Origin: Botrytis cinerea B05.10
Lineage: Eukaryota; Ascomycota; Leotiomycetes; Helotiales; Sclerotiniaceae
Reading direction: 5' to 3'
Length of the DNA: 64,000 nucleotides
Assembly: GCF_000143535.2 (NCBI RefSeq)
Contig: NC_037314.1
Coordinates: 2,356,001 to 2,420,000, forward strand
Shown: positions 644-42,727 of the stretch, piece after piece
How the letters are laid out: every line of letters starts with the position of its first letter
Numbering within the stretch: the stretch's first letter is position 1
Made by a program: the position numbers and the translations under genes
The notes under the pieces: generated by a model
What the model saw: the letters and a program-made list of their open reading frames with translations, nothing else
Databases searched by the model: none
What the model was told of the DNA's origin: nothing

Positions 644-1174
644 ATTCCATGATCAAATGAAGTATGTAGGCGGAATGGATGATGATTTTATGGTGGGATG
701 AGATGAGCTTTTTTTCTTGATGGGAATTGATTCTTATGATTGAGATGTTATGATGGATGGATGGTGGGTAATGATTGGTTGAATGATATTTTCTTTCGCT
801 TCGAGCTGGCTAGGGGATGGAATTGATGGAATTGGTTTGGTGATGGATGGATGGATTTATGAATGAAGGATTTCGCTTGAGAGTATTTGCTTTCTTGATC
901 AGTCAGGATGATGAATGGATAGTAGCTAGTTTCTTCTCTCTTCTCTTCTTCTCATTTCTTCTTCTTCACCTTCTCTCTTCTTGACTGGCTACTGCTATCA
1001 CTACTGCTACTACCATGGTAGTTAAAGAGTCAAAAAGTCAAAGGGTCAAAGAGTCGAAAAACAATTAACTTGAGATTCTCTCTTTAAATCTCGTTTCCAT
1101 ATTTTAATATGCTTTGCTATGAGGGATGTAATCCTATTAGCTTCTATTTTATTCGCTTCTTATATACATACATG

Positions 1175-1214
<40 letters not shown>

Positions 1215-1570
1215 TTATTAGTGGATCGGATTGTAGATATTATACATTGATAAATAAAGTGTCAAGGGGCTTGGACGCTAATTGCAAGCTTGATATTTTT
1301 CTTGTTTTTACCAACGCTGTTCTATTGAGCGGTGAATATGACTGGTCAAATGTACTTGTTCTTGGGGAATACACATAGAATCCCGGTCGAGCCTACCACA
1401 GAGCATAGGCATAAGTAAATATATAAAAATCCGGTGAGTATTCCCTTTTGATCCTATTATCGATATACAAGGATCAAAAGTATAAATCTATTTCCTTATG
1501 AATATCGAGAGTGCTATAGGCTATAAATCTTAGAGAGATCTTTGACGCCCTTATTAGATATTAATATCTT
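644..1570. other. Intergenic space between convergent genes, with a (TA)n tract and a hairpin
   Basis: There is no supportable gene. The stretch holds the 3' UTR of the exchanger, GATG-rich simple sequence (about 655-860), CTT-rich sequence (about 930-985), a (TA)n tract at 1180-1213, and an 11-bp perfect inverted repeat (CTTTTGATCCT 1445-1455, AGGATCAAAAG 1470-1480). An 89-codon frame over the TA tract looks like chance. Confidence 0.6.
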
Positions 1571-4213
1571 TCAAACTAGTGTAAATATCTCTGATTCCGA
1601 GTAATTTCTTCCTTTCAAATACTCACCATGCATAACACCCGAGACAAAGTACTCCCCAACAAATTCAAATCTCTTCACTTCCTTACTACTATTGCCACCC
1701 TCAACTTCACTGCTCACAGGCCTAAGTAAAAAGGGCACATTACCCCCATGCAAGATCACAATAATGTCACCGTTTCTAGCTGCCCACGGGCAAAGCCCGA
1801 CCAGTCCATTAGAGGCCAAAAAAAAGAAGGGATCAAGGCAAGTTAGAATTTTGTTTGTCTCGCATCGTTTTACCCCCCCTTCTGTCGCTAATAATGAAGC
1901 AAGACATATTGCAGGGAGATGAGGTCGCCTCACATATGCCCAATGAGCTTTGAGATGATCCAGGAATTCTCCGAGGCCGCGCGGATCATCCAACAACCGC
2001 CTCTCTACTGCGACAGGTAGATCGTCGCGATTTTCCCGCGCCCTCTCCGGCTTTGAATTCCATACCTTGTAGTGTCCACACGGATCGATGATCTGATCCC
2101 AGACGGCTAGCAAGTCTTTCAAAGGTTCGCTAATCTCTCTCAAGTCGTGATTCAAGGCGATGTAGGTCATCTCGGTAATGGTAGCCAAGTTGAAGCCCGC
2201 CAGTTTCAGAGTCTCGGGATCTGAGTCCGTGTCGAGATCTATTAGCGATGGGTCTGGGATAGTGGCATTCGATGCAGTAAATTGGAACAAAGTATTCAGA
2301 GTCGTTTTAGCCCAAGCAGCGTTTCCGTCACTGCCTATTGCCCATGTTGGCCTCGATGTTGGGGGTCCAAAGGGGTCATCGTGTAGACGTATCCAAGCTC
2401 GTCCTGGTTGGCCGTGGGTATATGATAGAATGGCTAGAGATTTGTTCTTGCAAATCCACCATTTAGTGAAGTCGGCAAGAACTCTTTTCGAAGATTTGCT
2501 ATAGGAAGGCCGGATTGCAAGGGGCAGTTCATCTGCTATACAGGTTTCTCGACCAAAAGGGAGTAAGGCAAAAAGCTTGTCCCGTGGGTCTGTTGCTTTG
2601 AGCTCCAAACCATCAAGGAAGACATCTAAAATGCCCAGATGATGACCTCCTTCCTGTGAAGAATCACGAGGATCTAGGCTTGCTAGATTACTTTGCTGCA
2701 TTCTCAAACTTGTCCAGATTGAAGGCATCATGGGATGGGCTGGCAGGAATGTCTCTTGGAACCTGTAATCCGTACTGTTGAGCCACATGTTAACATCAAG
2801 AAGTTCGTTCCAGGAAATAATTTCTGGGCCACAGTAAACGAGCGCCGTCCGTGCCCTCAACGCTTCTTGAAGTACCCATATCCGTCGAAACCAAGGGTTC
2901 ATAAAGAGGCATGACATGAGTTCGGATAAGTGAAGACCGAGATGTCCTCCAATAAGCTCTCTAACGCCAGTCACAAATCTGCTTTGATGCGCCGCAAAGA
3001 TTTCGTACATTCCTCTGAACGAGATGGGGGCTCTTGTTTGATCGATTGAGTCCGAGATGTTTGTAGGTATGATAGTATGACAGGTGCCGAAACAGGTGCA
3101 GGCATCACCGCCCTTACAAACTCGCACACTGAAGTTGTGGATGTCCCGAACCACTCTCATTCCAGCTTCGGTGCTTAGGTCTCCATCCCCGAGCCATATA
3201 TTGACAGCCGAAGCATTAGAATAGATCTCAGTCATCATATTTACTTGCTGTGCTCTTTCCTCGATATCATTCTGGTTGATGCACAATTGGTCGATCCATA
3301 TAGACCTAGGTCGATCTCTGTATCGCAGCTGTCTTAAAGCCATGAAGACTGAGCCGGTAGTGGAATAAACCTCAGACGGACCATTCATTTCCGAAGGATA
3401 TAAAATTAGCTCTGAGGAGTCATTTGCATTTCCCCAGCAGTAAGACAGAGCCTCAAATCCCCCCTTGCTTCCGAGGGTGTGAAATCGAATTGAGCAAACA
3501 ACTGGGTCTCCTGCTTCGCCTGGTTGCAAATCCAAGAGCCGGATCTCCTTTTCGGAACTATTGAGTGACCTTGCATAAATATGCTTCTCCATTGAAGGAG
3601 TATTCCTCAACAAGGGTCGCTCGGTGATAGGCTGGTACCCTATTGTAATTCGGGCTGTCCGGATGAAATTGACCCAACCTTGATAAGTCGCACGAGGAAC
3701 AAGCTGGACGACATCTCCAGGCTGGAGGCTCTCGATCCACTTCCACTTGGCTCCCGGGGTAGACTCATCCCATCGAGCTGTGTGATCATGAAACCTGGGA
3801 ACTCCACGGTGATTTTCAAAAAGTGTCATTATACGCAAATCAGTCCGATTGGGAGGCCGCCGAGCGGAAACATCCACCGACTACAAAGTATACGTTAGTC
3901 GTGAACGCTTAGGTATTGATCTACTTCGATAGGGTAAGCAGATAATGCCCAAGAGAGACTGCTGGGCGGCTCTCTTTACTTACGGTGAACGATGCACCTT
4001 CATTGCTGTCGCACCAACCTTACAAGAGTCAGTTGTAGCCATGTAATTCTGCCACGGGTTCGAAACCATACCTTGATCTCGACTTGACACTGCAAAGGCC
4101 ACATATTTGACCGAGTGCACATCTTCCGGGAGGACTAGCTCTAAGTAAGGTCGCTTAGGACAGTTCTGGTGTACCTGCACAAGACCGTGGCGTTCAACAG
4201 AGCTCTCTTTCAT
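1571..4213 (-). CDS. HET-domain (heterokaryon incompatibility) protein
   Basis: Proposed three-exon model on the minus strand: 4213-4072, 3997-3984 and 3880-1571, giving 821 aa. The long final frame lacks an upstream ATG (its first in-frame start-like codon is GTG), so upstream exons are needed. Splicing through a 14-nt exon yields SSRDQGASFTSVDVSARRP, similar to the N-terminal module often seen ahead of HET domains in ascomycetes. Both introns are GT-AG with CTGAC/CTAAC branch sites. Next comes PGDVVQLVPRATYQGWVN (about residues 105-125). The HET domain begins near residue 194 with FEALSYCWG and continues with IWIDQLCINQND, INIWLGDGD-like and PWFRRIWVLQEA-type motifs. HET proteins trigger cell death or incompatibility when unlike hyphae fuse; this one's partner is unknown. 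It sits beside a transposon island. The N-terminal exons are less certain than the HET call. Confidence 0.85.
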
Positions 4214-9785: not shown

Positions 9786-9832
9786 ACGTAACGTATGGGG
9801 AACTCGGACATATGGGGAACTCGGACACTTTT
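9786..9832 (+). repeat. Left TIR of the pogo-type element
   Basis: It is 47 bp and matches the reverse complement of 11593-11639. The 17-bp block is repeated at 9794-9810 and 9811-9827, the likely transposase-binding sites. Confidence 0.9.
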
Positions 9833-9869
9833 AGCCCATCACCAACTTGAAACCGCAATAACTTTTATT

Positions 9870-11588
9870 ATGCATACCCAATCACCTTCTACATCTGCTC
9901 AAATTGAAGAGAAGCTTCAAAAGGCTATAATTTCACTTCAATTGAAAGAATTTAAATCAATTAGAAAGGCTGCAGAGCATTTTGAAGTCCCTAAGTCTAC
10001 CCTAGCTGATAGGCTGGCTGGGAAGAAAACACGTTCCCAAACCCACGAAATGGCTCAAATTCTTTCAAACGCAGAAGAAAATACTCTTGTACGATGGATT
10101 TCACGACTTACCATCACTGGATTCCCTGCTACACCTATGTTGGTGAAGGAAATGGCCGACGAAATTCGTCTTCGACGCGTTCGGGTCGCGTCATCTCGAA
10201 ATCCTACCTCGACAGAAATTCCACCTATAGGCCACGAATGGATCTATAGATTCCAAAAACGACATCCAGAACTTAAAACATGCTATTCACGTCAATTAGA
10301 GTCTAATCGGGCTAAAGAAGCAACTCCGGAGAATATTCAGGCTTGGTTTGACGCGTTTCGCACGCGTCTCATTGAGCGAAAGTATGAATTAGATGATATG
10401 TATAATATGGATGAAACCGGATTTGGAGTTGGAAGTACTCAAAGTACGCGCATTATAGTCGATTCTACTCAGAAGTCGAATTGGAAAGTTACAGCTGGCA
10501 AGCAAGAATGGATAACTGCATTTGAATGTATCAATGCAGCTGGAAATGCTCTATCACCTATGGTCATTTTCAAGGCTCAGAATACGAATTCTGCATGGAT
10601 TCCAAAGGACACACCTCAAAGCTGGCAGTTCTCTACTAGTACAAATGGATGGACCTCAAATAGCCATGGATTAGAATGGTTAAAAAGGGTTTTCGAACCA
10701 GAATCCAAGAAAGTGTCAGGTGACCGACCTCGACTTTTGATCATGGATGGCCATTCAAGCCATATTACAGGTAGCTTTATTGCTTTCTGTATAGATAATG
10801 ATATCGATTTACTTATATTACCTCCTCATTGCTCTCACTTGCTTCAGCCACTTGATATTGCGGTGTATGGGCCAATGAAACGATATCATGCTTTAGAGGT
10901 CGATCGATATTCTCGAGCTGGTGTAAAGCGAATCCAAAGAGCTGAATGGGTAGAACTCTTTCAAAATATCAGAAAAAAAGCATTGAATTCTTCTAATATT
11001 AAAGCTGGCTGGAGAGGAGCTGGTTTAGTACCTTTTGCCCCACGAAAAGTACTCGATTCATTACCATTTAACTCCTCCCAGCAACCTTCTACTCCACAAA
11101 TGAGAACCCCCAATCAAGACCTAGACTTGTCTATACTCAGGAGTTCTCCTCCAGATGGAACAGAACTAAGGCAAGCAAATCAGATCTTTAATACAGCTCT
11201 AGCAAGCAGTGGTTCTCCTGCATCGCCAACTCGTCGATATGCCAAGAGAATGACTAGGCTTGTAGAATCTCAAAATGCTGAGATAGCCCTACTTCGGAAA
11301 CAGCTCTCTGATGCTCAGGAGGTAATTGAGACTCGAAAGAAGAGAACTAAAGGCAAAAGAGTCAAATTACAAGGTCAATTTGTCTTTAGTACTAAGGAAG
11401 TATTGAAAATGGTACGTGAGGCGGAGGAAAAACCGAAGGAGAAAAAGCCACGAGGACGGCCACGCAAACGCCCAATTGAAGAATCAGAAGAAGAGATTGA
11501 AGAAGAAGAGCTAGAGAATAGTTCAAGTGATTCGGAATTGGAATTGGAGGATTGTGTGGCTCGTAGAACAAGATCGCGTGTAGAATAA
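9870..11588 (+). CDS. Pogo/Fot1-family transposase
   Basis: This is a 572-aa DDE transposase that cuts and pastes the surrounding element at TA sites in the nucleus. An in-frame ATG at 9795 lies inside the TIR. I prefer the next ATG (9870), just past the TIR. In order: a psq-type helix-turn-helix (SIRKAAEHFEVPKSTLADRL); a CENP-B/Tc5-type second HTH (about residues 60-165, with EWIYRFQKRHPEL); the DDE_1 catalytic domain with its Asp residues in NMDETGFG, LIMDGHSSH and LQPLDIAVYGPMK; a predicted coiled coil (SQNAEIALLRKQLSDAQEV); and an AT-hook-like PRGRPRKRP followed by an acidic tail. All catalytic residues are present and no stop or frameshift is seen, so the element may be active. No intron is needed. 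Confidence 0.93.
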   Translation: MHTQSPSTSAQIEEKLQKAIISLQLKEFKSIRKAAEHFEVPKSTLADRLAGKKTRSQTHEMAQILSNAEENTLVRWISRLTITGFPATPMLVKEMADEIRLRRVRVASSRNPTSTEIPPIGHEWIYRFQKRHPELKTCYSRQLESNRAKEATPENIQAWFDAFRTRLIERKYELDDMYNMDETGFGVGSTQSTRIIVDSTQKSNWKVTAGKQEWITAFECINAAGNALSPMVIFKAQNTNSAWIPKDTPQSWQFSTSTNGWTSNSHGLEWLKRVFEPESKKVSGDRPRLLIMDGHSSHITGSFIAFCIDNDIDLLILPPHCSHLLQPLDIAVYGPMKRYHALEVDRYSRAGVKRIQRAEWVELFQNIRKKALNSSNIKAGWRGAGLVPFAPRKVLDSLPFNSSQQPSTPQMRTPNQDLDLSILRSSPPDGTELRQANQIFNTALASSGSPASPTRRYAKRMTRLVESQNAEIALLRKQLSDAQEVIETRKKRTKGKRVKLQGQFVFSTKEVLKMVREAEEKPKEKKPRGRPRKRPIEESEEEIEEEELENSSSDSELELEDCVARRTRSRVE

Positions 11589-21914: not shown

Positions 21915-22240
21915 TTATTTGTTACGACGGATTAGTAACAGGCTGTAGAATCACCAACGTATAGGCTATAATGGTATTATAGGCCTCAGTGATTCAGCTG
22001 CAGTATACCGGGGGACACTAGGCACCCAAGGAAAGCCTCAGGCATGTATATAGTATTAGTCATAGGATATCCTAGAAACGTAGGATACAGCTCCTAGGAC
22101 AATAGGTCCTAGGAAGCACTGAACATAACTTTGCAAACTTTTCGCGAAGTTATATTAGTAATATCCCAGGGGATTAGCCCCAGGATAAAAGGATAAGCTA
22201 GGACAATAGGAATCACAGGACAAGTGTCATGTGATCAAAA

Positions 22241-22288
22241 GCCGATCGACTTATCGATCGACTTGCCGATCGACTTGTCGGTCGACTT
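22241..22288 (+). repeat. Four tandem 12-bp units in the LTR, just upstream of TATA
   Basis: The units GCCGATCGACTT, ATCGATCGACTT, GCCGATCGACTT and GTCGGTCGACTT end 13 bp before the TATA box, where an enhancer or factor-binding array would sit. The same array recurs at 28281-28328 in the 3' LTR. Confidence 0.85.
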
Positions 22289-22301
22289 CAGGACGAAGGT
22301 C

Positions 22302-22308
22302 TATATAT
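22302..22308 (+). promoter_or_regulatory. Probable TATA box of the gypsy LTR
   Basis: TATATAT lies about 240 bp upstream of the gag ATG. A start site about 30-37 bp downstream would fall at 22332-22340, close to the putative self-primer at 22339-22347. Confidence 0.55.
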
Positions 22309-22489
22309 GGAATGGGTTTCATTACAATGTAGAGCTTCGTGCTCAAGAACAATCATTAGTTTCATTACTATAGTTACGAGAATTGCAACCAGTTACAACC
22401 TTATTGAATTCCTACTTGAAGTCTAGTCTAAACCACCTCGAGAGATCTCTAGACACTTCCACGTGACCCTAGAGGCAGCTCCCGTAACA

Positions 22490-22540: not shown

Positions 22541-25500
22541 ATGGCATCCAGAGCCACCGCCACAGGTCAGTCTACCGGAGATACCAACGATATCGAGATG
22601 ACCGATGCCCCAAAGGAGATCACTATCAACGAAACCCTTAAGATCGCCTTACCAGACAAGTACCAAGGTAGTCGACAAGAGCTCGATACTTTCCTCTTAC
22701 AACTTGAGATCTACTTTCGATTCAATGAGGACAAGTTCACTACCAAGGAATCCAAGAGTATATGGGCCGCATCATACCTTCGAGGTGAAGCAACCAAATG
22801 GATCCAACCATATTTGCGCGACTATTTCGAGCATGACGATAAGGATCGCATGCAACCCACCCGAACAATCTTCAATAGTTTTGAAGGATTTAAGACAGAG
22901 ATTCGCAGAATCTTCGGAAATTCCAACGAGTTAGAGGTAGCGGAAGATAAGATCTTCAATCTCAAGCAGACAGGATCAGCATTGAAATATGCTACGGAAT
23001 TTCGAAGATATGCTGGAACAACCAAGTGGGACGAAATCGCTATCATGAGTCACTACCGCAAGGGACTCAAACCAGAAGTCAGACTGGAATTAGAAAGATC
23101 TGCCGAGAGTACAGATCTGAACGATCTAATTCAGGACTCCATCGAATCAGATGATCGTCTCTACAGATATCGACAAAGCCAGAGATCATACAAACCCCAA
23201 GGAAATCAGAAGCAAGGGCGTTACCGCAAGAATGAGGGTAGACCACGTTACAATCCACAAAGATACGGAGACCCCATGGAACTAGACGCTACGCACTACA
23301 CAAACGGGAACGATGACTCAGAAAAGAGACGAAGACGAGAAAACAACTTATGCTTTGAATGTGGAAAAGCAGGGCACCGAGCAGCAGACTGCCGAAGCAA
23401 GAAGACAGGAGGAAAAAGGGGCAACTTCAAACCTAAGTTCGGCAAAGGCCAACTTAACGCTACCTTTACAATCCCAGAAAACCCAACTAAATCCGAAAAT
23501 ACTGAGACTTTCACCGTTGAGGAATTTCAGCAATTACTAAAGGAATTATCACGAAATCAAGAGGGCATGAATGCAATAGATGTATGGGAACAAGAGTATT
23601 ACCGAACCCCAACACCCTCTGTAACAGAAGAAAGTCACCAGGACGAGACAGAAGCAGACCATGCCACGATGAGCTGGACAGCTTGCTATGATGAATTCTG
23701 CGGAATCCATCGATCAGATAAAGAAGCAACCGGATGGTTCCCTAAGAAGAGAAAGACGAAGGACCATCAGAATAATGTAACATGCGAGGATTTAACTCCC
23801 AATATAACTTCGCAAGAAGTTCGCAAAGTTACTCAGCAGTTGAATGCTACGGGACAGGCAGGACAGATATACTGCAAAGTTCAGATAAATGGACACATAC
23901 AATCAGCCATGATAGATTCAGGGGCTACAGGAAATTTTATTGCACCGGAAGCTGCAAAGTACTTGGAAATACCACTTCAAACGAAACAACACCCCTACCG
24001 ATTGCAGTTAGTTGACGGACAGCTAGCAGGGTCTGACGGAAAGATTTCGCAGGAGACAATCCCAATACGAATGGGCATAACCCAACATACAGAGGTTATA
24101 CAGCTTGACGTTGTGCCATTGGGCCAACAACAGATCATCTTAGGAATGCCATGGTTAAAGGCACATAATCCGAAAATAGATTGGGCACAAGGAGTTGTGA
24201 CATTTGATCAGTGCAAAAGCGGTCACAGGGACACGCTAGAGGCGTCCGCGAGACGTAACACGCGCCAAGGAGAGTTGAACGCGAACAACACCGGCGACGT
24301 AGGACACCCAGTCCAGGGTCCTCCATTAAGAGCGAAGGCCAGTACACCTCCTCTACAAATGCAGAAGCCAACGACACGGCAGGAAATCGCAATCAAGGCA
24401 AAGGAGCCTATGATACCAGAACAGTACAAGAAGTACGAACATGTTTTCAAAGAACCAGGGATCCATGAGGCTTTACCAGAACACAAGCCATGGGATCATG
24501 AAATAATATTGGAGGAAGGCAAGATGCCTGTGCACACCCCAATTTATTCAATGTCAGCCGATGAGCTAAAAACGCTCAAGGAATATATCGACGACAACTT
24601 GGCCAAGGGATGGATCAGAGAATCCACGTCCCAAGTGGCAAGTCCAACTATGTGGGTACCTAAGAAAGATGGTACTAAGAGACTAGTTGTGGACTACAGA
24701 AAGCTCAACACGCTTACAAAGAAAGATCGATATCCACTTCCATTAGCTACGGAACTAAGAGATCGATTAGGCGGAGCAACAATATTTACCAAGATGGACC
24801 TACGAAACGGGTACCACTTAATTAGAATGAAGGAAGGCGAGGAATGGAAAACCGCTTTTAAAACAAGATACGGGCTATACGAATATCAAGTTATGCCATT
24901 CGGGCTAACGAACGCACCAGCTACTTTCATGAGACTTATGAACAATGTGCTGTCGCAATACTTGGACACCTGTTGTATATGCTACTTGGACGACATCCTA
25001 GTATATTCAAACAACGAGGTCCAACACATCAAAGATGTCAGCAATATTCTTGAAAGTTTAGCCAAAGCCGATTTGCTATGTAAACCAAGCAAATGTGAAT
25101 TCCATGTTACGGAAACGGAGTTTCTAGGATTCACCGTATCAAGCCAAGGGCTCAAGATGAGCAAAGATAAGGTCAAGGCAGTGCTTGAGTGGAAGCAGCC
25201 AAATACAATTAAAGAATTACAGTCCTTTCTAGGATTTGTCAACTTTTACCGAAGGTTTATTAGAGGATATTCAGGGATTACAACATCCTTAACCAACCTA
25301 ACCAAGAAGGATCAAGGAAGTTTCGAATGGACCACCAAGGCGCAGGAGTCATTCGATACACTCAAACAAGCAGTAGCGAAAGAGCCAATATTGTTAACAT
25401 TCGACCCTGAGAAGCCAATCATAGTGGAAACGGATTCCTCAGATTTCGCTATAGGCGCAGTTTTGAGCCAACCAGGCCAGAAGGAGAAATGACAACCAAT

Positions 25501-27391
25501 CGCATTCTACTCTCGAAAACTATCACCAGCCGAATTAAATTATGAAATATACGACAAAGAATTACTGGCAATAGTCGATGCATTTAGAGAATGGCGAGTT
25601 TATTTGGAAGGATCAAAATACCCAGTACAAGTGTACACAGATCATAAGAACTTGGTTTACTTCACCACAACGAAGCAGTTAAACAGACGACAGGTCAGAT
25701 GGTCAGAGACCATGGCCAACTACAATTTTAGAATTTCATATGTCAAAGGATCAGAAAACGCTAGAGCCGACGCTCTTAGCCGAAAACCAGAATATCAAGA
25801 AAACAAAACGTACGAGTCATACGCTATATTCAAGAAAGACGGCGAATCACTGGTTTACAATGCACCACAGCTTGCAGCAACACACCTGTTGGAAGACAAC
25901 CACCTCAGGAAACAGATCCAATCACACTACGACAAGGATGCTACTGCCACACGCATACGCAAGACAATAGAACCAGGATTCACTATAGAAAATGATACCA
26001 TATACTTTCATGGAAAAGTATACATTCCGAGTCAAATGACCAAGGAATTTGTGACGGAACAACATGGGTTGCCGGCACATGGACATCAAGGAATTGCAAG
26101 GACATTTGCAAGAATACGGGGAATCAGTTACTTCCCACGAATGAGAACGATAGTTGAAGAAGTTGTTGGAAATTGTGACGCCTGCATACGAAACAAGTCA
26201 TCACGACATGCACCGTATGGTCAGCTCCAGACCCCAGACATGCCTTCTCAGCCATGGAAGTCCATCACATGGGACTTTGTGGTCAAACTACCACTCTCAA
26301 AGGATCCTACTACAGGAATTGAGTACGACGCGATACTCAATATAGTAGACAGGCTAACGAAATTCGCATATATGATACCATTCAAGGAAACATGGGATGC
26401 TGAGCAACTAGCATATGTGTTCCTAAGGATCATAGTAAGCATACACGGAGTACCAGATGAGATAATCTCGGATCGAGACAAGCTCTTTACCTCGAAATTC
26501 TGGACTACCTTATTAGCACTTATGGGTATCAAGAGAAAGCTATCGACATCTTTCCACCCACAAACAGATGGTCAAACAGAGAGGACCAATCAGACAATGG
26601 AAGCATATCTTAGATGCTATGTAAATTATCGACAAGACAATTGGGTAGAGCTATTACCCATGGCACAGTTCGCATACAACACATCGGAAACGGAAACCAC
26701 GAAAATCACACCAGCACGAGCTAATTTTGGGTTTAATCCACAAGCGTATAAAATCCCGATACCACAAGAAGTTAATGCCGAATCAGCGATAGTACAAGTC
26801 GAACAGCTGAAAGATCTCCAAGAGCAACTGGCTCTTGATCTAAGATTCATATCTTCCAGAACAGCAGCGTACTACAATACGAAACGTAGTATGGAACCTA
26901 CGCTTAAAGAGGGGGATAAAGTTTATTTGCTACGACGAAACATCGAAACCAAGAGACCAAGCAATAAACTCGACCACAGGAAACTAGGACCATTCAAGAT
27001 TGATAAGGTAATAGGAACGGTTAATTATCGATTGAAATTACCAGACACAATGAATATCCACCCAGTATTCCACATATCCTTGCTCGAACCAGCACCACCA
27101 GGAGCGCCAAATGCGCCATTTACAGAAATTGAACCAGTCAACCCAAACGCCATATACGATGTAGAAACAATACTAGACTGCAAATACGTCAGAAACAAGG
27201 TCAAGTATTTGATCAAATGGTTAGACTACCCACATTCAGAAAACACATGGGAACTCAAGGAAGATCTCAGCTGCCCTGAGAAACTACGGGCATTCCACCT
27301 GAAGTACCCACATCTGCCAACAAAGCCTCAAGCTCCGCATCAGACAATAAAGGCAACGAAGGGTCGAAGAAACCAAAAGAAGAACCACTAG
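22541..27391 (+). pseudogene. Gypsy gag-pol polyprotein with one internal stop (TGA 25490-25492)
   Basis: A single 1616-codon frame starts at ATG 22541. Gag comes first, with zinc knuckle CFECGKAGHRAADC at residues 271-284. Protease follows (MIDSGATGNFI, about 457). Reverse transcriptase has RLVVDYRKLN, TKMDLRNGYH and YLDDILVY (815). The stop TGA at codon 984 falls between RT and RNase H. RNase H continues (FYSRKLSPAELNY, YTDHKNLVYF), then integrase with an HHCC zinc finger (HGLPAHGHQG...CDACIRNK) and DDE core (SDRDKLFTSKFW, HPQTDGQTERTNQ), then a chromodomain near 1540-1600 (YLIKWLDYP, NTWELKEDL). The TGA is most simply a CGA-to-TGA point mutation, because everything after it stays in frame. 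The 3' end overlaps the antisense ORF by 125 bp. Confidence 0.93.
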
Positions 27392-27863
27392 GAGTAGACG
27401 TAGTAACAGCGGTTGCTGTCTCTTTCTCCGCACGCTCCTTTTCCAATTTTTCCTTTTCCAACCTTTCATTCTCCTCAGCTAGATCAAGCTCTTCTAGCGT
27501 ACGAAGATCTCGACGAATCATCTCCTTTTCACGCTTGCGAAGAAATTCTTGTTGCTTGCGCAATCGAAGAATCCGGGCATTAATCTCCTGCGACTGAGCG
27601 AAAGCCTTTTCTTCCTCCAAGCGCAGCAACTCCTGCTGTCGCTCCAAAGATCCATAATTTGTAGGCATCTCTGACCCAGGACGGCAACGACCTTTTTTGT
27701 GACGGATACACTCGGCACAACGCTGTGATAAACTATCGTCAACAATGCAACGACGATTGGATTTGATGCACAAATCGCAAGAATCTCTTTCAGTACCAGA
27801 ACGCTCGACGCGGCGAACCAAGTTAAGAATATCGTGAACAGAAGCTGTCCGTGTAGGAGGCAT
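27267..27863 (-). CDS. Antisense ORF of the gypsy element: Zn2Cys6-like cluster plus coiled coil
   Basis: 198 aa from a genuine ATG (27863), intronless, encoded opposite to gag-pol between its 3' end and the 3' LTR. Cysteines at 29, 32, 39, 49, 52 and 60 give C-x2-C-x6-C-x9-C-x2-C-x7-C, matching the fungal Zn2Cys6 (Gal4-type) consensus. They are surrounded by basic residues (IKSNRRC, IRHKKGRC). Residues about 72-150 form a long charged heptad-rich segment (RQQELLRLEEEKAF onward), a likely coiled coil for dimerisation. The C-terminus is Ser/Gly/acidic (FGFFDPSLPLLSDAELEALLADVG), similar to an activation-type tail. The ATG is 97 bp from the 3' LTR, so antisense transcription would have to begin in that LTR. 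A DNA-binding regulator carried by the element is the best reading; no experimental basis is seen. Confidence 0.7.
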   Translation of the reverse strand: MPPTRTASVHDILNLVRRVERSGTERDSCDLCIKSNRRCIVDDSLSQRCAECIRHKKGRCRPGSEMPTNYGSLERQQELLRLEEEKAFAQSQEINARILRLRKQQEFLRKREKEMIRRDLRTLEELDLAEENERLEKEKLEKERAEKETATAVTTSTPSGSSFGFFDPSLPLLSDAELEALLADVGTSGGMPVVSQGS

Positions 27864-27959
27864 ACTGAAGAAGAAAACATCACAATCATTTAAGTAAACG
27901 AAAGGGAAGACGTACTAATATAAACGCTTGGGACAAGCGCTAGGCTAAGAAGGGGATAG

Positions 27960-28529
27960 TGTTACGACGGATTAGTAACAGGCTGTAGAATCACCAACGT
28001 ATAGGCTATAATGGTATTATAGGCCTCAGTGATTCAGCTGCAGTATACCGGGGGACACTAGGCACCCAAGGAAAGCCTCAGGCATGTATATAGTATTAGT
28101 CATAGGATATCCTAGAAACGTAGGATACAGCTCCTAGGACAATAGGTCCTAGGAAGCACTGAACATAACTTTGCAAACTTTTCGCGAAGTTATATTAGTA
28201 ATATCCCAGGGGATTAGCCCCAGGATAAAAGGATAAGCTAGGACAATAGGAATCACAGGACAAGTGTCATGTGATCAAAAGCCGATCGACTTATCGATCG
28301 ACTTGCCGATCGACTTGTCGGTCGACTTCAGGACGAAGGTCTATATATGGAATGGGTTTCATTACAATGTAGAGCTTCGTGCTCAAGAACAATCATTAGT
28401 TTCATTACTATAGTTACGAGAATTGCAACCAGTTACAACCTTATTGAATTCCTACTTGAAGTCTAGTCTAAACCACCTCGAGAGATCTCTAGACACTTCC
28501 ACGTGACCCTAGAGGCAGCTCCCGTAACA
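27960..28529 (+). repeat. 3' LTR of the gypsy element
   Basis: 570 bp, apparently identical to 21920-22489, followed by the TTATT duplication. Confidence 0.95.
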
Positions 28530-28534
28530 TTATT

Positions 28535-41166: not shown

Positions 41167-42727
41167 TTACATTTTGATGGAGATGTCGTATACATCCAAA
41201 CCTACGGCAAGTCCTGTCAAAGCAGAGGCATAAAGTAGTAATATCCCCATAGCTTGGAGATTGCTGACAAATAAAGTTGGGATGGTCAGGTTGACGAGTC
41301 CTGTGAGTAGATTTGCAGCCAAGAAGATGGCCAGGCCATTTCTGTTAAATGCTTCAAGGACTCGACTTGTTGAGAGTTCGTAATTCTCCTTTTCCGTCTT
41401 CGCATCCATGCTTTTATGAGCCGCCGGGGAGAATATCGTTTCCACCAAACAAAATGCAGTCAATTGTGAGCAATTGAAAGCTGAAACCCATAGGAAATAC
41501 GGAAGGTTCGCAAGGCGGCGTGATACACTTAATGCCATTCCATATCTGTAATTTGTCGTGAAGAAGTAGAGGGCAATCCACACTCCTGACCATGTACCCA
41601 TTTTCATCAAGAGGCGTTTTCTCTGAGCAACTGGACCTCCCGTGGGTATAGAATTGCGTGGTAATACAAACATTCCAGTTGCTTGACCCGCCAGAAATAT
41701 TGCGAGGTAGCCAAAGAAACTAAAGATTCCTTCACGATTCTTCGAAAATAGATCTGTTCTTGGTGCTGTGAGTATAAACGCTTTGAGGCTGGTATATTCG
41801 AGCGTAACTTGATACAAGGAGCCGAGGATTACGGCCAACAGGGCGTATGACGGGATGAGCTGAAACGCAGACTGAAATATCGCTACGAATGGAGGAATGA
41901 ATGCAAGGGTAAAGAAGAAATTCCAGTGCACTCCATATTCAGTAACATGCTCCGCATAGTCCAATCCTTTGACACTGTATAAACGTATGGTCCCGAGAGC
42001 AATCAATGGTAGTGCATGGCGTATCGAGTTGTATAAGCGTGTGCTGAGCTTCGTTGTTCGACCAGCATTCTGTTCTTTGAGTATCGGACGAGCGCCCACA
42101 AGACCACCTGAAAATACGAAAGATCCTACTCCCATGTCCATTAACGACGTTCCCCAGTTTTCTACCTTAGCAAACCTTCGTGGGAAAATCCTGAAATCGA
42201 CTGCAAGTATAGCTATACAAGTGATAACCATCATCGCCCCTCTATAGATGGTAAGGAAAGGTTTCTTTGGAAGAGGATTCAATTCGTCTGAAGGCTTCGC
42301 TTTTGATTGTGGCATTCTTGATTTCTTTGGCGGGGCCTTTTGTGTAGTCTTCTGTGGTGGAATTGCATATAACAATGGAACTGGCGCAAGGAGTAAGAGA
42401 TTCAATATGAGAGGCATATCTGCGTAGACAGAAATCGCAAGAAGAATAGCCCCGACATTGAGGAGGAAGTCGACAGCGAAAGCAATTGGGGTATATGGTG
42501 CGAAAAAATACTGGCGGCTCTGTAAAGCTGACCAAAGGATAACTGCGACCTGTTCCAGTACGTTAGCTCGCTGTGGAATAACAATTGTTTGCATTGCTCA
42601 AACATACTGGAGCGACAGCAGTAACCATATTAATTTCTCCAATTCCTCCACCTGTCAAATTTGACACGAACTCCTCCTTCAAGCTTTTATAACTAGCAGC
42701 CATAGCTGCTTCCGCTGCCCGCGACAT
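41167..42727 (-). CDS. GWT1: GPI-anchored wall transfer protein 1 (glucosaminyl-PI inositol acyltransferase)
   Basis: Exon 42727-42608 (40 codons) joins 42549-41167 across a 58-nt intron with a CTAAC branch, giving 500 aa, close to yeast Gwt1 (about 490). Gwt1/PIG-W acylates inositol of GlcN-PI in the ER during GPI-anchor synthesis. The splice restores the conserved start [15 protein letters not shown]...VTAVAP and [13 protein letters not shown]. The hallmark [20 protein letters not shown] followed by [14 protein letters not shown] is present. Other family marks are [30 protein letters not shown] and [21 protein letters not shown]. About a dozen hydrophobic membrane segments are visible. A Lys/Pro-rich loop ([12 protein letters not shown]) sits between early segments. 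The transcript is divergent from the Clp1-like gene, with about 1 kb between starts. Confidence 0.95.

What the first reader, a model, noticed from the sequence alone, without database searches (positions are those of the whole stretch)
27267..27863. Gypsy retrotransposon carrying an antisense Zn2Cys6-like regulator gene
A 198-codon frame with a true ATG lies antisense between pol and the 3' LTR and overlaps the pol 3' end by 125 bp. Its six cysteines fit the fungal Zn2Cys6 spacing exactly (C-x2-C-x6-C-x9-C-x2-C-x7-C), followed by a coiled coil and an acidic tail. That is a full Gal4-type transcription-factor plan inside a chromovirus. An element-encoded DNA-binding protein could control LTR transcription (perhaps via the 12-bp LTR array), suppress its own sense strand by antisense RNA, or alter host genes near new insertions. 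I do not know whether it has been described.
Basis: partly seen in the sequence, partly recalled or inferred. Interest (0 to 1): 0.78.

Follow-up and report, generated by a model that had tools for sequence, protein, structure and literature searches.

The report
Retrotransposon's antisense gene matched to LTR
A jumping gene in a grey-mould fungus carries a known but unexplained backwards gene that looks like a Gal4-type DNA-binding regulator, and each version of that gene comes with its own control box in the element's promoter, which suggests that the element may run its own private switch.

Summary
The frame 27267-27863(-) is brtn, reported in Boty-like elements of Botrytis cinerea (Zhao et al. 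2011; title seen only in reference lists); a 2020 review calls the function of such genes unknown. It is a real gene: 60 matches in this genome, homologues in other Leotiomycetes, six conserved cysteines, dN/dS 0.08-0.32 outside the pol overlap in the two closest type pairs. Inside the overlap the antisense frame, not pol, looks constrained. Profile and fold comparisons of the N-terminus rank Gal4, Hap1 and Put3 (Zn2Cys6) first, all below formal significance.

New here: six gene types sit on nearly identical elements (gag-pol dS 0.06-0.10 among four types; zinc-domain dS above 1 in all 15 type pairs). In types A, B, C2 and E the only other comparably divergent stretch is a repeat-rich box just upstream of the LTR TATA box (here the 12-bp repeats); about 300 bp of 94-96% identical U3 lies between. 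Gene type and box type agree in 50 of 51 copies scored, but copies are clonal: six types are the real sample. Best reading: BRTN regulates, probably activates, its own LTR through this box. DNA binding and expression are untested here.

The parts
21915..21919 (.). target site duplication ttatt, left
21920..22489 (+). 5' LTR, identical to the 3' LTR over 570 bp
22242..22289 (.). 5' LTR copy of the U3 box (four 12-bp repeats)
22302..22307 (+). TATA-like element of the sense promoter, 5' LTR
   Evidence: conserved among types
22541..25492 (+). gag-protease-RT frame
25604..27391 (+). RNase H end-integrase-chromodomain frame; the pol frame of this copy is interrupted between 25492 and 25604
27267..27863 (-). 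antisense gene brtn, 198 aa, type A
27684..27779 (-). six-cysteine Zn2Cys6-like cluster, residues 29-60
27402..27659 (-). long helix (coiled coil, inferred), residues 69-154
27270..27392 (-). acidic tail, residues 158-198, overlapping pol; constrained in the antisense frame
27918..27923 (-). TATA-like element before brtn
27925..27939 (.). inverted repeat CGCTTG-N3-CAAGCG
   Evidence: 32 of 34 genomic sites lie before a brtn copy
27947..27959 (+). polypurine tract (by position and composition)
27960..28529 (+). 3' LTR
28282..28329 (.). U3 box of type A: four 12-bp repeats, proposed BRTN target
28342..28347 (+). TATA-like element of the sense promoter, 3' LTR
28530..28534 (.). target site duplication ttatt, right

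Best explanation
BRTN is a Gal4-like DNA-binding regulator made from the antisense strand of the retrotransposon. It dimerises through its long coil, binds the repeat box just upstream of the TATA box in the U3 of its own LTR and, through its acidic tail, most likely activates LTR transcription. Each lineage has its own pair of BRTN zinc domain and LTR box, so each switches on its own copies and little else. Shown by sequence: the gene, its conservation as a protein, the strong divergence of zinc domain and box on a nearly identical backbone, and their pairing. Inferred: zinc binding, DNA binding, the box as target, dimerisation, and activation rather than repression (activation alone about 0.4).
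For: Purifying selection outside the pol overlap and own-frame constraint in the overlap, where variable sites are 8, 8 and 19 at antisense codon positions 1, 2 and 3. Zn2Cys6 proteins first for the N-terminus and first for the whole model in Foldseek. Six gene types on one backbone. Gene type and box type agree in 30 of 31 copies read directly and 20 of 20 decayed copies scored. Zinc-domain identity and box similarity correlate over 15 type pairs, r 0.71, 5 of 720 permutations as high or higher. Boxes are rich in repeated words and lie directly before the TATA element.
Against: No expression or binding data. All fold and profile matches are weak, and realignment of the whole model ranks two unrelated coil proteins above Hap1 and Lac9. 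Copies are clonal, so six types are the sample. One copy (L009) pairs a type-B gene with a type-A box. Types D and C1 differ also in the 5' part of U3, so the conserved intervening stretch rests on A, B, C2 and E. Word repeats are also in excess in the rest of U3 for five of six types. Box pairs C1-E and C2-D show marginal similarity (p 0.010 and 0.024). Pairing was tested in one genome only.
Confidence: 0.55

Rival explanations
1. BRTN is a lineage-specific repressor: it binds the same boxes but limits copy number, like heteroimmunity of temperate phages (analogy recalled). Divergent pairs would be favoured because a new pair escapes repression by resident copies.
For: Same pairing data. Diversifying pairs on a common backbone fit escape from repression. 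The box lies directly before the TATA element.
Against: The acidic, hydrophobic tail is conserved in its own frame, more in keeping with activation. Several types reach 5-7 copies side by side.
Confidence: 0.2
2. BRTN is a sequence-specific anti-silencing factor, like VANC of Arabidopsis VANDAL elements: it binds its motif arrays and relieves chromatin silencing of its own element rather than acting as a classical activator.
For: VANC proteins bind motifs that often form tandem repeats differing between related elements (PMC5735166, abstract and one section); the pattern here is similar.
Against: No methylation or chromatin data. BRTN resembles Zn2Cys6 factors; no comparison with VANC was made.
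Confidence: 0.1
3. The pairing is only physical linkage: the 3' end of the element is exchanged as one block by template switching, and the U3 box diverges without constraint.
For: Gene start and box are about 420 bp apart; copies are clonal; types D and C1 differ through much of U3.
Against: In A, B, C2 and E the stretch between is 94-96% identical while both ends are far apart. Sites variable inside a type and shared between types lie on both sides of the box and a few between. C1 and C2, the most similar zinc domains, share a box core although their U3 differs.
Confidence: 0.12
4. The product that matters is the antisense RNA, feeding small-RNA silencing, and the protein is secondary.
For: A TATA-like element and inverted repeat precede the frame. 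BcGypsy1, which holds brtn, is among the three families with significant small RNAs in axenic culture (PMC8365987, section 5 and passages).
Against: Amino-acid conservation with saturated synonymous sites and conserved cysteines across genera.
Confidence: 0.03

Closest known systems
brtn of Boty-like retrotransposons, Botrytis cinerea (Zhao et al. 2011, Virology 417:248-252; not held, title seen in reference lists)
   Same: Antisense gene between pol and 3' LTR of Boty-like elements; P0016, named Putative BRTN, matches the type-C2 protein of this genome.
   Different: This copy is type A, 57% identical to P0016. Whether the 2011 paper noted the zinc-cluster pattern or the LTR boxes I could not check.
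Zn2Cys6 (Gal4-type) transcription factors, PF00172
   Same: Six-cysteine spacing, fold rank, following coil, acidic tail.
   Different: Far below family thresholds; small; encoded antisense in a retrotransposon.
Antisense aORFs of plant gypsy elements (Grande gene23, RIRE2, Retand, PvRetro13)
   Same: Same position and strand; function unknown (PMC7264820, passages).
   Different: Sequence relation not tested here; fungal host; zinc cluster.
VANC of Arabidopsis VANDAL elements
   Same: Element-encoded protein and target repeats that vary together between related elements (PMC5735166).
   Different: DNA transposon, other protein, anti-silencing shown by experiment there.
HBZ of HTLV-1 (recalled)
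   Same: Antisense-encoded transcription regulator of a retroelement with LTRs.
   Different: bZIP protein; no matched LTR boxes known to me.
Immunity regions of lambdoid phages (recalled)
   Same: Regulator and its sites exchanged as pairs on a common backbone.
   Different: Repressor and operators in a phage.

Membership tests
BRTN family | antisense gene between pol and 3' LTR of a gypsy element | tested here: met
BRTN family | sequence homology to a protein named BRTN | tested here: met
   P0016, named Putative BRTN, 57% identity
Zn2Cys6 (PF00172) | six cysteines with C-x2-C-x6-C-x(5-12)-C-x2-C-x(6-8)-C (range recalled) | tested here: met
   each cysteine kept in 89-92 of 96 rows
Zn2Cys6 (PF00172) | Pfam gathering score | tested here: inconclusive
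   no Zn_clus match for P0001 at E<=1; 9 of 32 relatives match at E<=1, best 0.0077
Zn2Cys6 (PF00172) | fold of the binuclear cluster | tested here: inconclusive
Zn2Cys6 (PF00172) | zinc and DNA binding | not testable with these tools
   needs recombinant protein
VANC-like anti-silencing factors | loss of silencing marks on the element | not testable with these tools
   no methylation or expression data held

The most novel reading that the evidence does not exclude
Fungal chromoviruses carry exchangeable regulator-target cassettes: an antisense-encoded Zn2Cys6 factor and its cognate repeat box in the LTR, kept in matched pairs, older than the host genera, and moved between otherwise nearly identical elements; a retrotransposon counterpart of phage immunity regions.
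Probability: 0.45. Interest if true: 0.85.

Novelty: new variant of a known kind. Interest (0 to 1): 0.64.

Why it matters
Antisense genes between pol and the 3' LTR are known in fungal and plant gypsy elements, but their function is stated to be unknown (PMC7264820, passages). If BRTN reads its own LTR box, one of them gets a directly testable function, and it would show how near-identical retrotransposons in one genome keep separate control circuits. The brtn-bearing BcGypsy1 group is among the families that make small RNAs in Botrytis cinerea (PMC8365987), so its control bears on that biology. The pairs would also be a natural set of zinc domains with different DNA targets.

Tried and rejected

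Rows dropped before counts. Of the 60 matches, two pairs lie in one copy each (C4:2456675 with C4:2457180; C17:316 with C17:557): 58 copies. Three were never fetched (C10:716305, C6:2690227, C13:77367): 55. Four could not be scored for the box: L043, L046, L055 (no box found) and L056 (the score belonged to a neighbouring type-D copy already counted). That leaves 51: 31 (35 rows minus 4 second fetches of the same copy) and 20 of the 24 loci; of these L058 is weak (0.54 against a null maximum of 0.49). L003 printed a wrong frame; its type A rests (91% identity). Decayed copies match their type perfectly or nearly so in purine/pyrimidine letters, so they are not independent lineages. Tree: 31 of the 96 rows, chosen because they were named or close to a Botrytis type. 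One search used 29 of the 31 copies (23 for the pol stretch, 18 for the U3 stretch) and counted L009 as a type of its own, which raises the number of shared sites.

Full report
What is there. The window lies in a 42.63 Mb, 18-contig genome. The best protein match to the frame is 99% identical and named Botrytis cinerea, so the host is B. cinerea or very close (inference). The element is a gypsy chromovirus: 570-bp identical LTRs, gag-protease-RT and integrase-chromodomain frames, 5-bp duplication ttatt. The pol frame of this copy is interrupted between 25492 and 25604; several sister copies have it open over 1621-1626 codons.

The antisense frame. 27267-27863(-) encodes 198 aa with the stated cysteine spacing. 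The own genome has 60 matches: families with open frames at 99-100, 82, 76, 60, 59, 58 and 45% identity, and many decayed copies. A first search found 14 proteins at E<=1; a profile search found 151 at E<=0.01, of which 120 are listed, with named sources in Botrytis, Monilinia, Sclerotinia, Stromatinia, Rutstroemia, Hymenoscyphus, Cadophora, Calycina and Pseudogymnoascus. One is named Putative BRTN (P0016), and one from S. sclerotiorum (P0021) bears a name beginning Zn(2)-C6 fungal-ty.

Already known. Zhao et al. [quoted passage not shown] The paper itself is not held and I have not read it. PMC7264820 says the function of such antisense frames is not known. PMC5987419 reports a Monilinia transcript similar to BRTN (passage). 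Among the listings I saw no title or opening of an abstract that describes matched LTR boxes in such elements; the listings are cut and the library lacks most subscription papers, so this does not prove novelty.

A selected protein. Outside the pol overlap, dN/dS between types C1 and C2 is 0.11 in the zinc domain (dS 2.2, near saturation) and 0.08 in the coil; between A and B it is 0.32 (dS 1.06) and 0.16. Other type pairs are more diverged, often with saturated synonymous sites; the highest finite zinc-domain value is 0.72 (B-C1), and pN/pS stays below 1 wherever it is defined. The near-identical pair B and L009 has 0.44 from about 15 changes. From the two frames, antisense codon position 3 falls on pol position 2 and antisense position 2 on pol position 3. 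In the overlap, variable sites number 8, 8 and 19 at antisense positions 1, 2 and 3 (40 codons, 7 sequences): the antisense protein, not pol, looks like the constrained partner, so the acidic tail seems to be kept for its own sake.

Two variable parts on one backbone. Six gene types exist here: A (this copy), B, C1, C2, D, E. Nucleotide identity of A to B, C2, E and D is 97.8-99.1% in gag and 98.1-99.4% in the integrase region, but 66.8, 43.9, 41.6 and 46.7% in the zinc half of the antisense gene. The coil (84.8, 64.7, 48.2, 56.6%) and the short leader before the gene diverge too. The block with TATA-like element, inverted repeat and polypurine tract is 95.3, 95.3, 92.2 and 67.6% identical; the 5' part of U3 96.1, 94.4, 93.8 and 38.0%; the box before the TATA element 66.7, 40.6, 31.1 and 33.3%; TATA-R-U5 92.9-100%. 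Type C1 was not in that comparison; its U3 also differs. Gag-pol dS among B, C2, D and E (six pairs) is 0.056-0.097, while zinc-domain dS is above 1 or saturated in all 15 type pairs.

The boxes. A has four 12-bp units; B has related 13-bp units with TCGACTT; C1 and C2 share CGCTCC-W-GGAGCG, though their best overall alignment is in reverse orientation; D has seven copies of GGATAG or its complement; E has repeated ATCCCA-type words. Repeated 6-mers exceed dinucleotide shuffles in all six boxes (p 0.0005-0.0045, 2000 shuffles), but also in the rest of U3 for five of six types. Gene type and box type agree in 30 of 31 copies read directly and in 20 of 20 decayed copies scored in purine/pyrimidine letters, one of them weakly. 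The exception, L009, has a type-B gene and a type-A box, the most similar pair of boxes. Over the 15 type pairs, zinc-domain identity and box similarity correlate (r 0.71, 5 of 720 permutations as high or higher; rank correlation 0.59, 12 of 720). The similarity is clear only for A-B and C1-C2; C1-E (p 0.010) and C2-D (p 0.024) are marginal. Copies are clonal, so six types are the real sample.

Age and exchange. In a tree of 31 N-terminal sequences, type B groups with Monilinia fructigena (100/99) and C1 with Sclerotinia sclerotiorum (98/92) rather than with C2; E falls in a clade with an S. sclerotiorum protein (95/93). So several types seem older than these genera, unless elements moved between hosts, while the backbone in this genome is nearly uniform. 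Sites variable within a type with both alleles in other types number 12 of 75 variable columns in the pol end, 1 of 4 in the polypurine block, 3 of 40 in the 5' part of U3 and 5 of 14 in TATA-R-U5. This fits exchange between types, though many are C/T or G/A and could recur by mutation.

Mechanism. The simplest account is that BRTN binds the box at the LTR core promoter, each type its own, and activates through its acidic tail. The box is in both LTRs, so it could serve the sense transcript from the 5' LTR and the antisense gene from the 3' LTR (inference). An inverted repeat lies 1 bp from a TATA-like element about 55 bp before the brtn ATG; 32 of 34 genomic sites of this repeat lie before a brtn copy, against 2 for the reversed control pattern. 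Its arms do not vary with type, so it may serve a host factor or reverse transcription beside the polypurine tract. Repression with lineage immunity, anti-silencing and mere linkage remain possible.

Verdict. The gene is known; its likely nature and its matched LTR box appear new within what I could search. Membership in Zn2Cys6 is probable, not proven; that it works like a Gal4-type regulator of its own LTR is the best reading, at about 0.55.

Noticed in passing
L040:1655-2227 (-) and 688-1617 (-), G000:C14:275600-278600: A different gypsy family has, downstream of pol, an antisense frame with six cysteines (C-x2-C-x12-C-x9-C-x2-C-x6-C, so the second gap does not fit Zn2Cys6), then a second antisense frame with an acidic end. 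17 own-genome matches, 2 without stops; no homologue at E<=0.01; no convincing Pfam match. A third gypsy family (L039) shows no such frame.
   Followed up: partly
27925-27939: Inverted repeat CGCTTG-N3-CAAGCG beside a TATA-like element before brtn, arms the same in all six types even where U3 differs. Function unknown.
   Followed up: partly
24600-25200: The RT stretch of this copy is only 88-89% identical to the B, C2, E and D copies, against 97-99% in most of the rest of gag-pol; exchange with another family or local mutation.
   Followed up: no
L031:2406-2979: An LTR with a type-C2 box lies about 150 bp beyond the type-E element of L031; no internal region is seen beside it in the fetched stretch.
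   Followed up: no
L058 (G000:C17:1-3300): A decayed type-A copy has a shorter box, about two 12-bp units instead of four, so array length varies within a type.
   Followed up: no
9795-11588 (+), 1571-3877 (-), 41167-42594 (-): By Pfam: a DDE_1 transposase with Tc5-type DNA-binding domain, a HET-domain protein, and GWT1.
   Followed up: no
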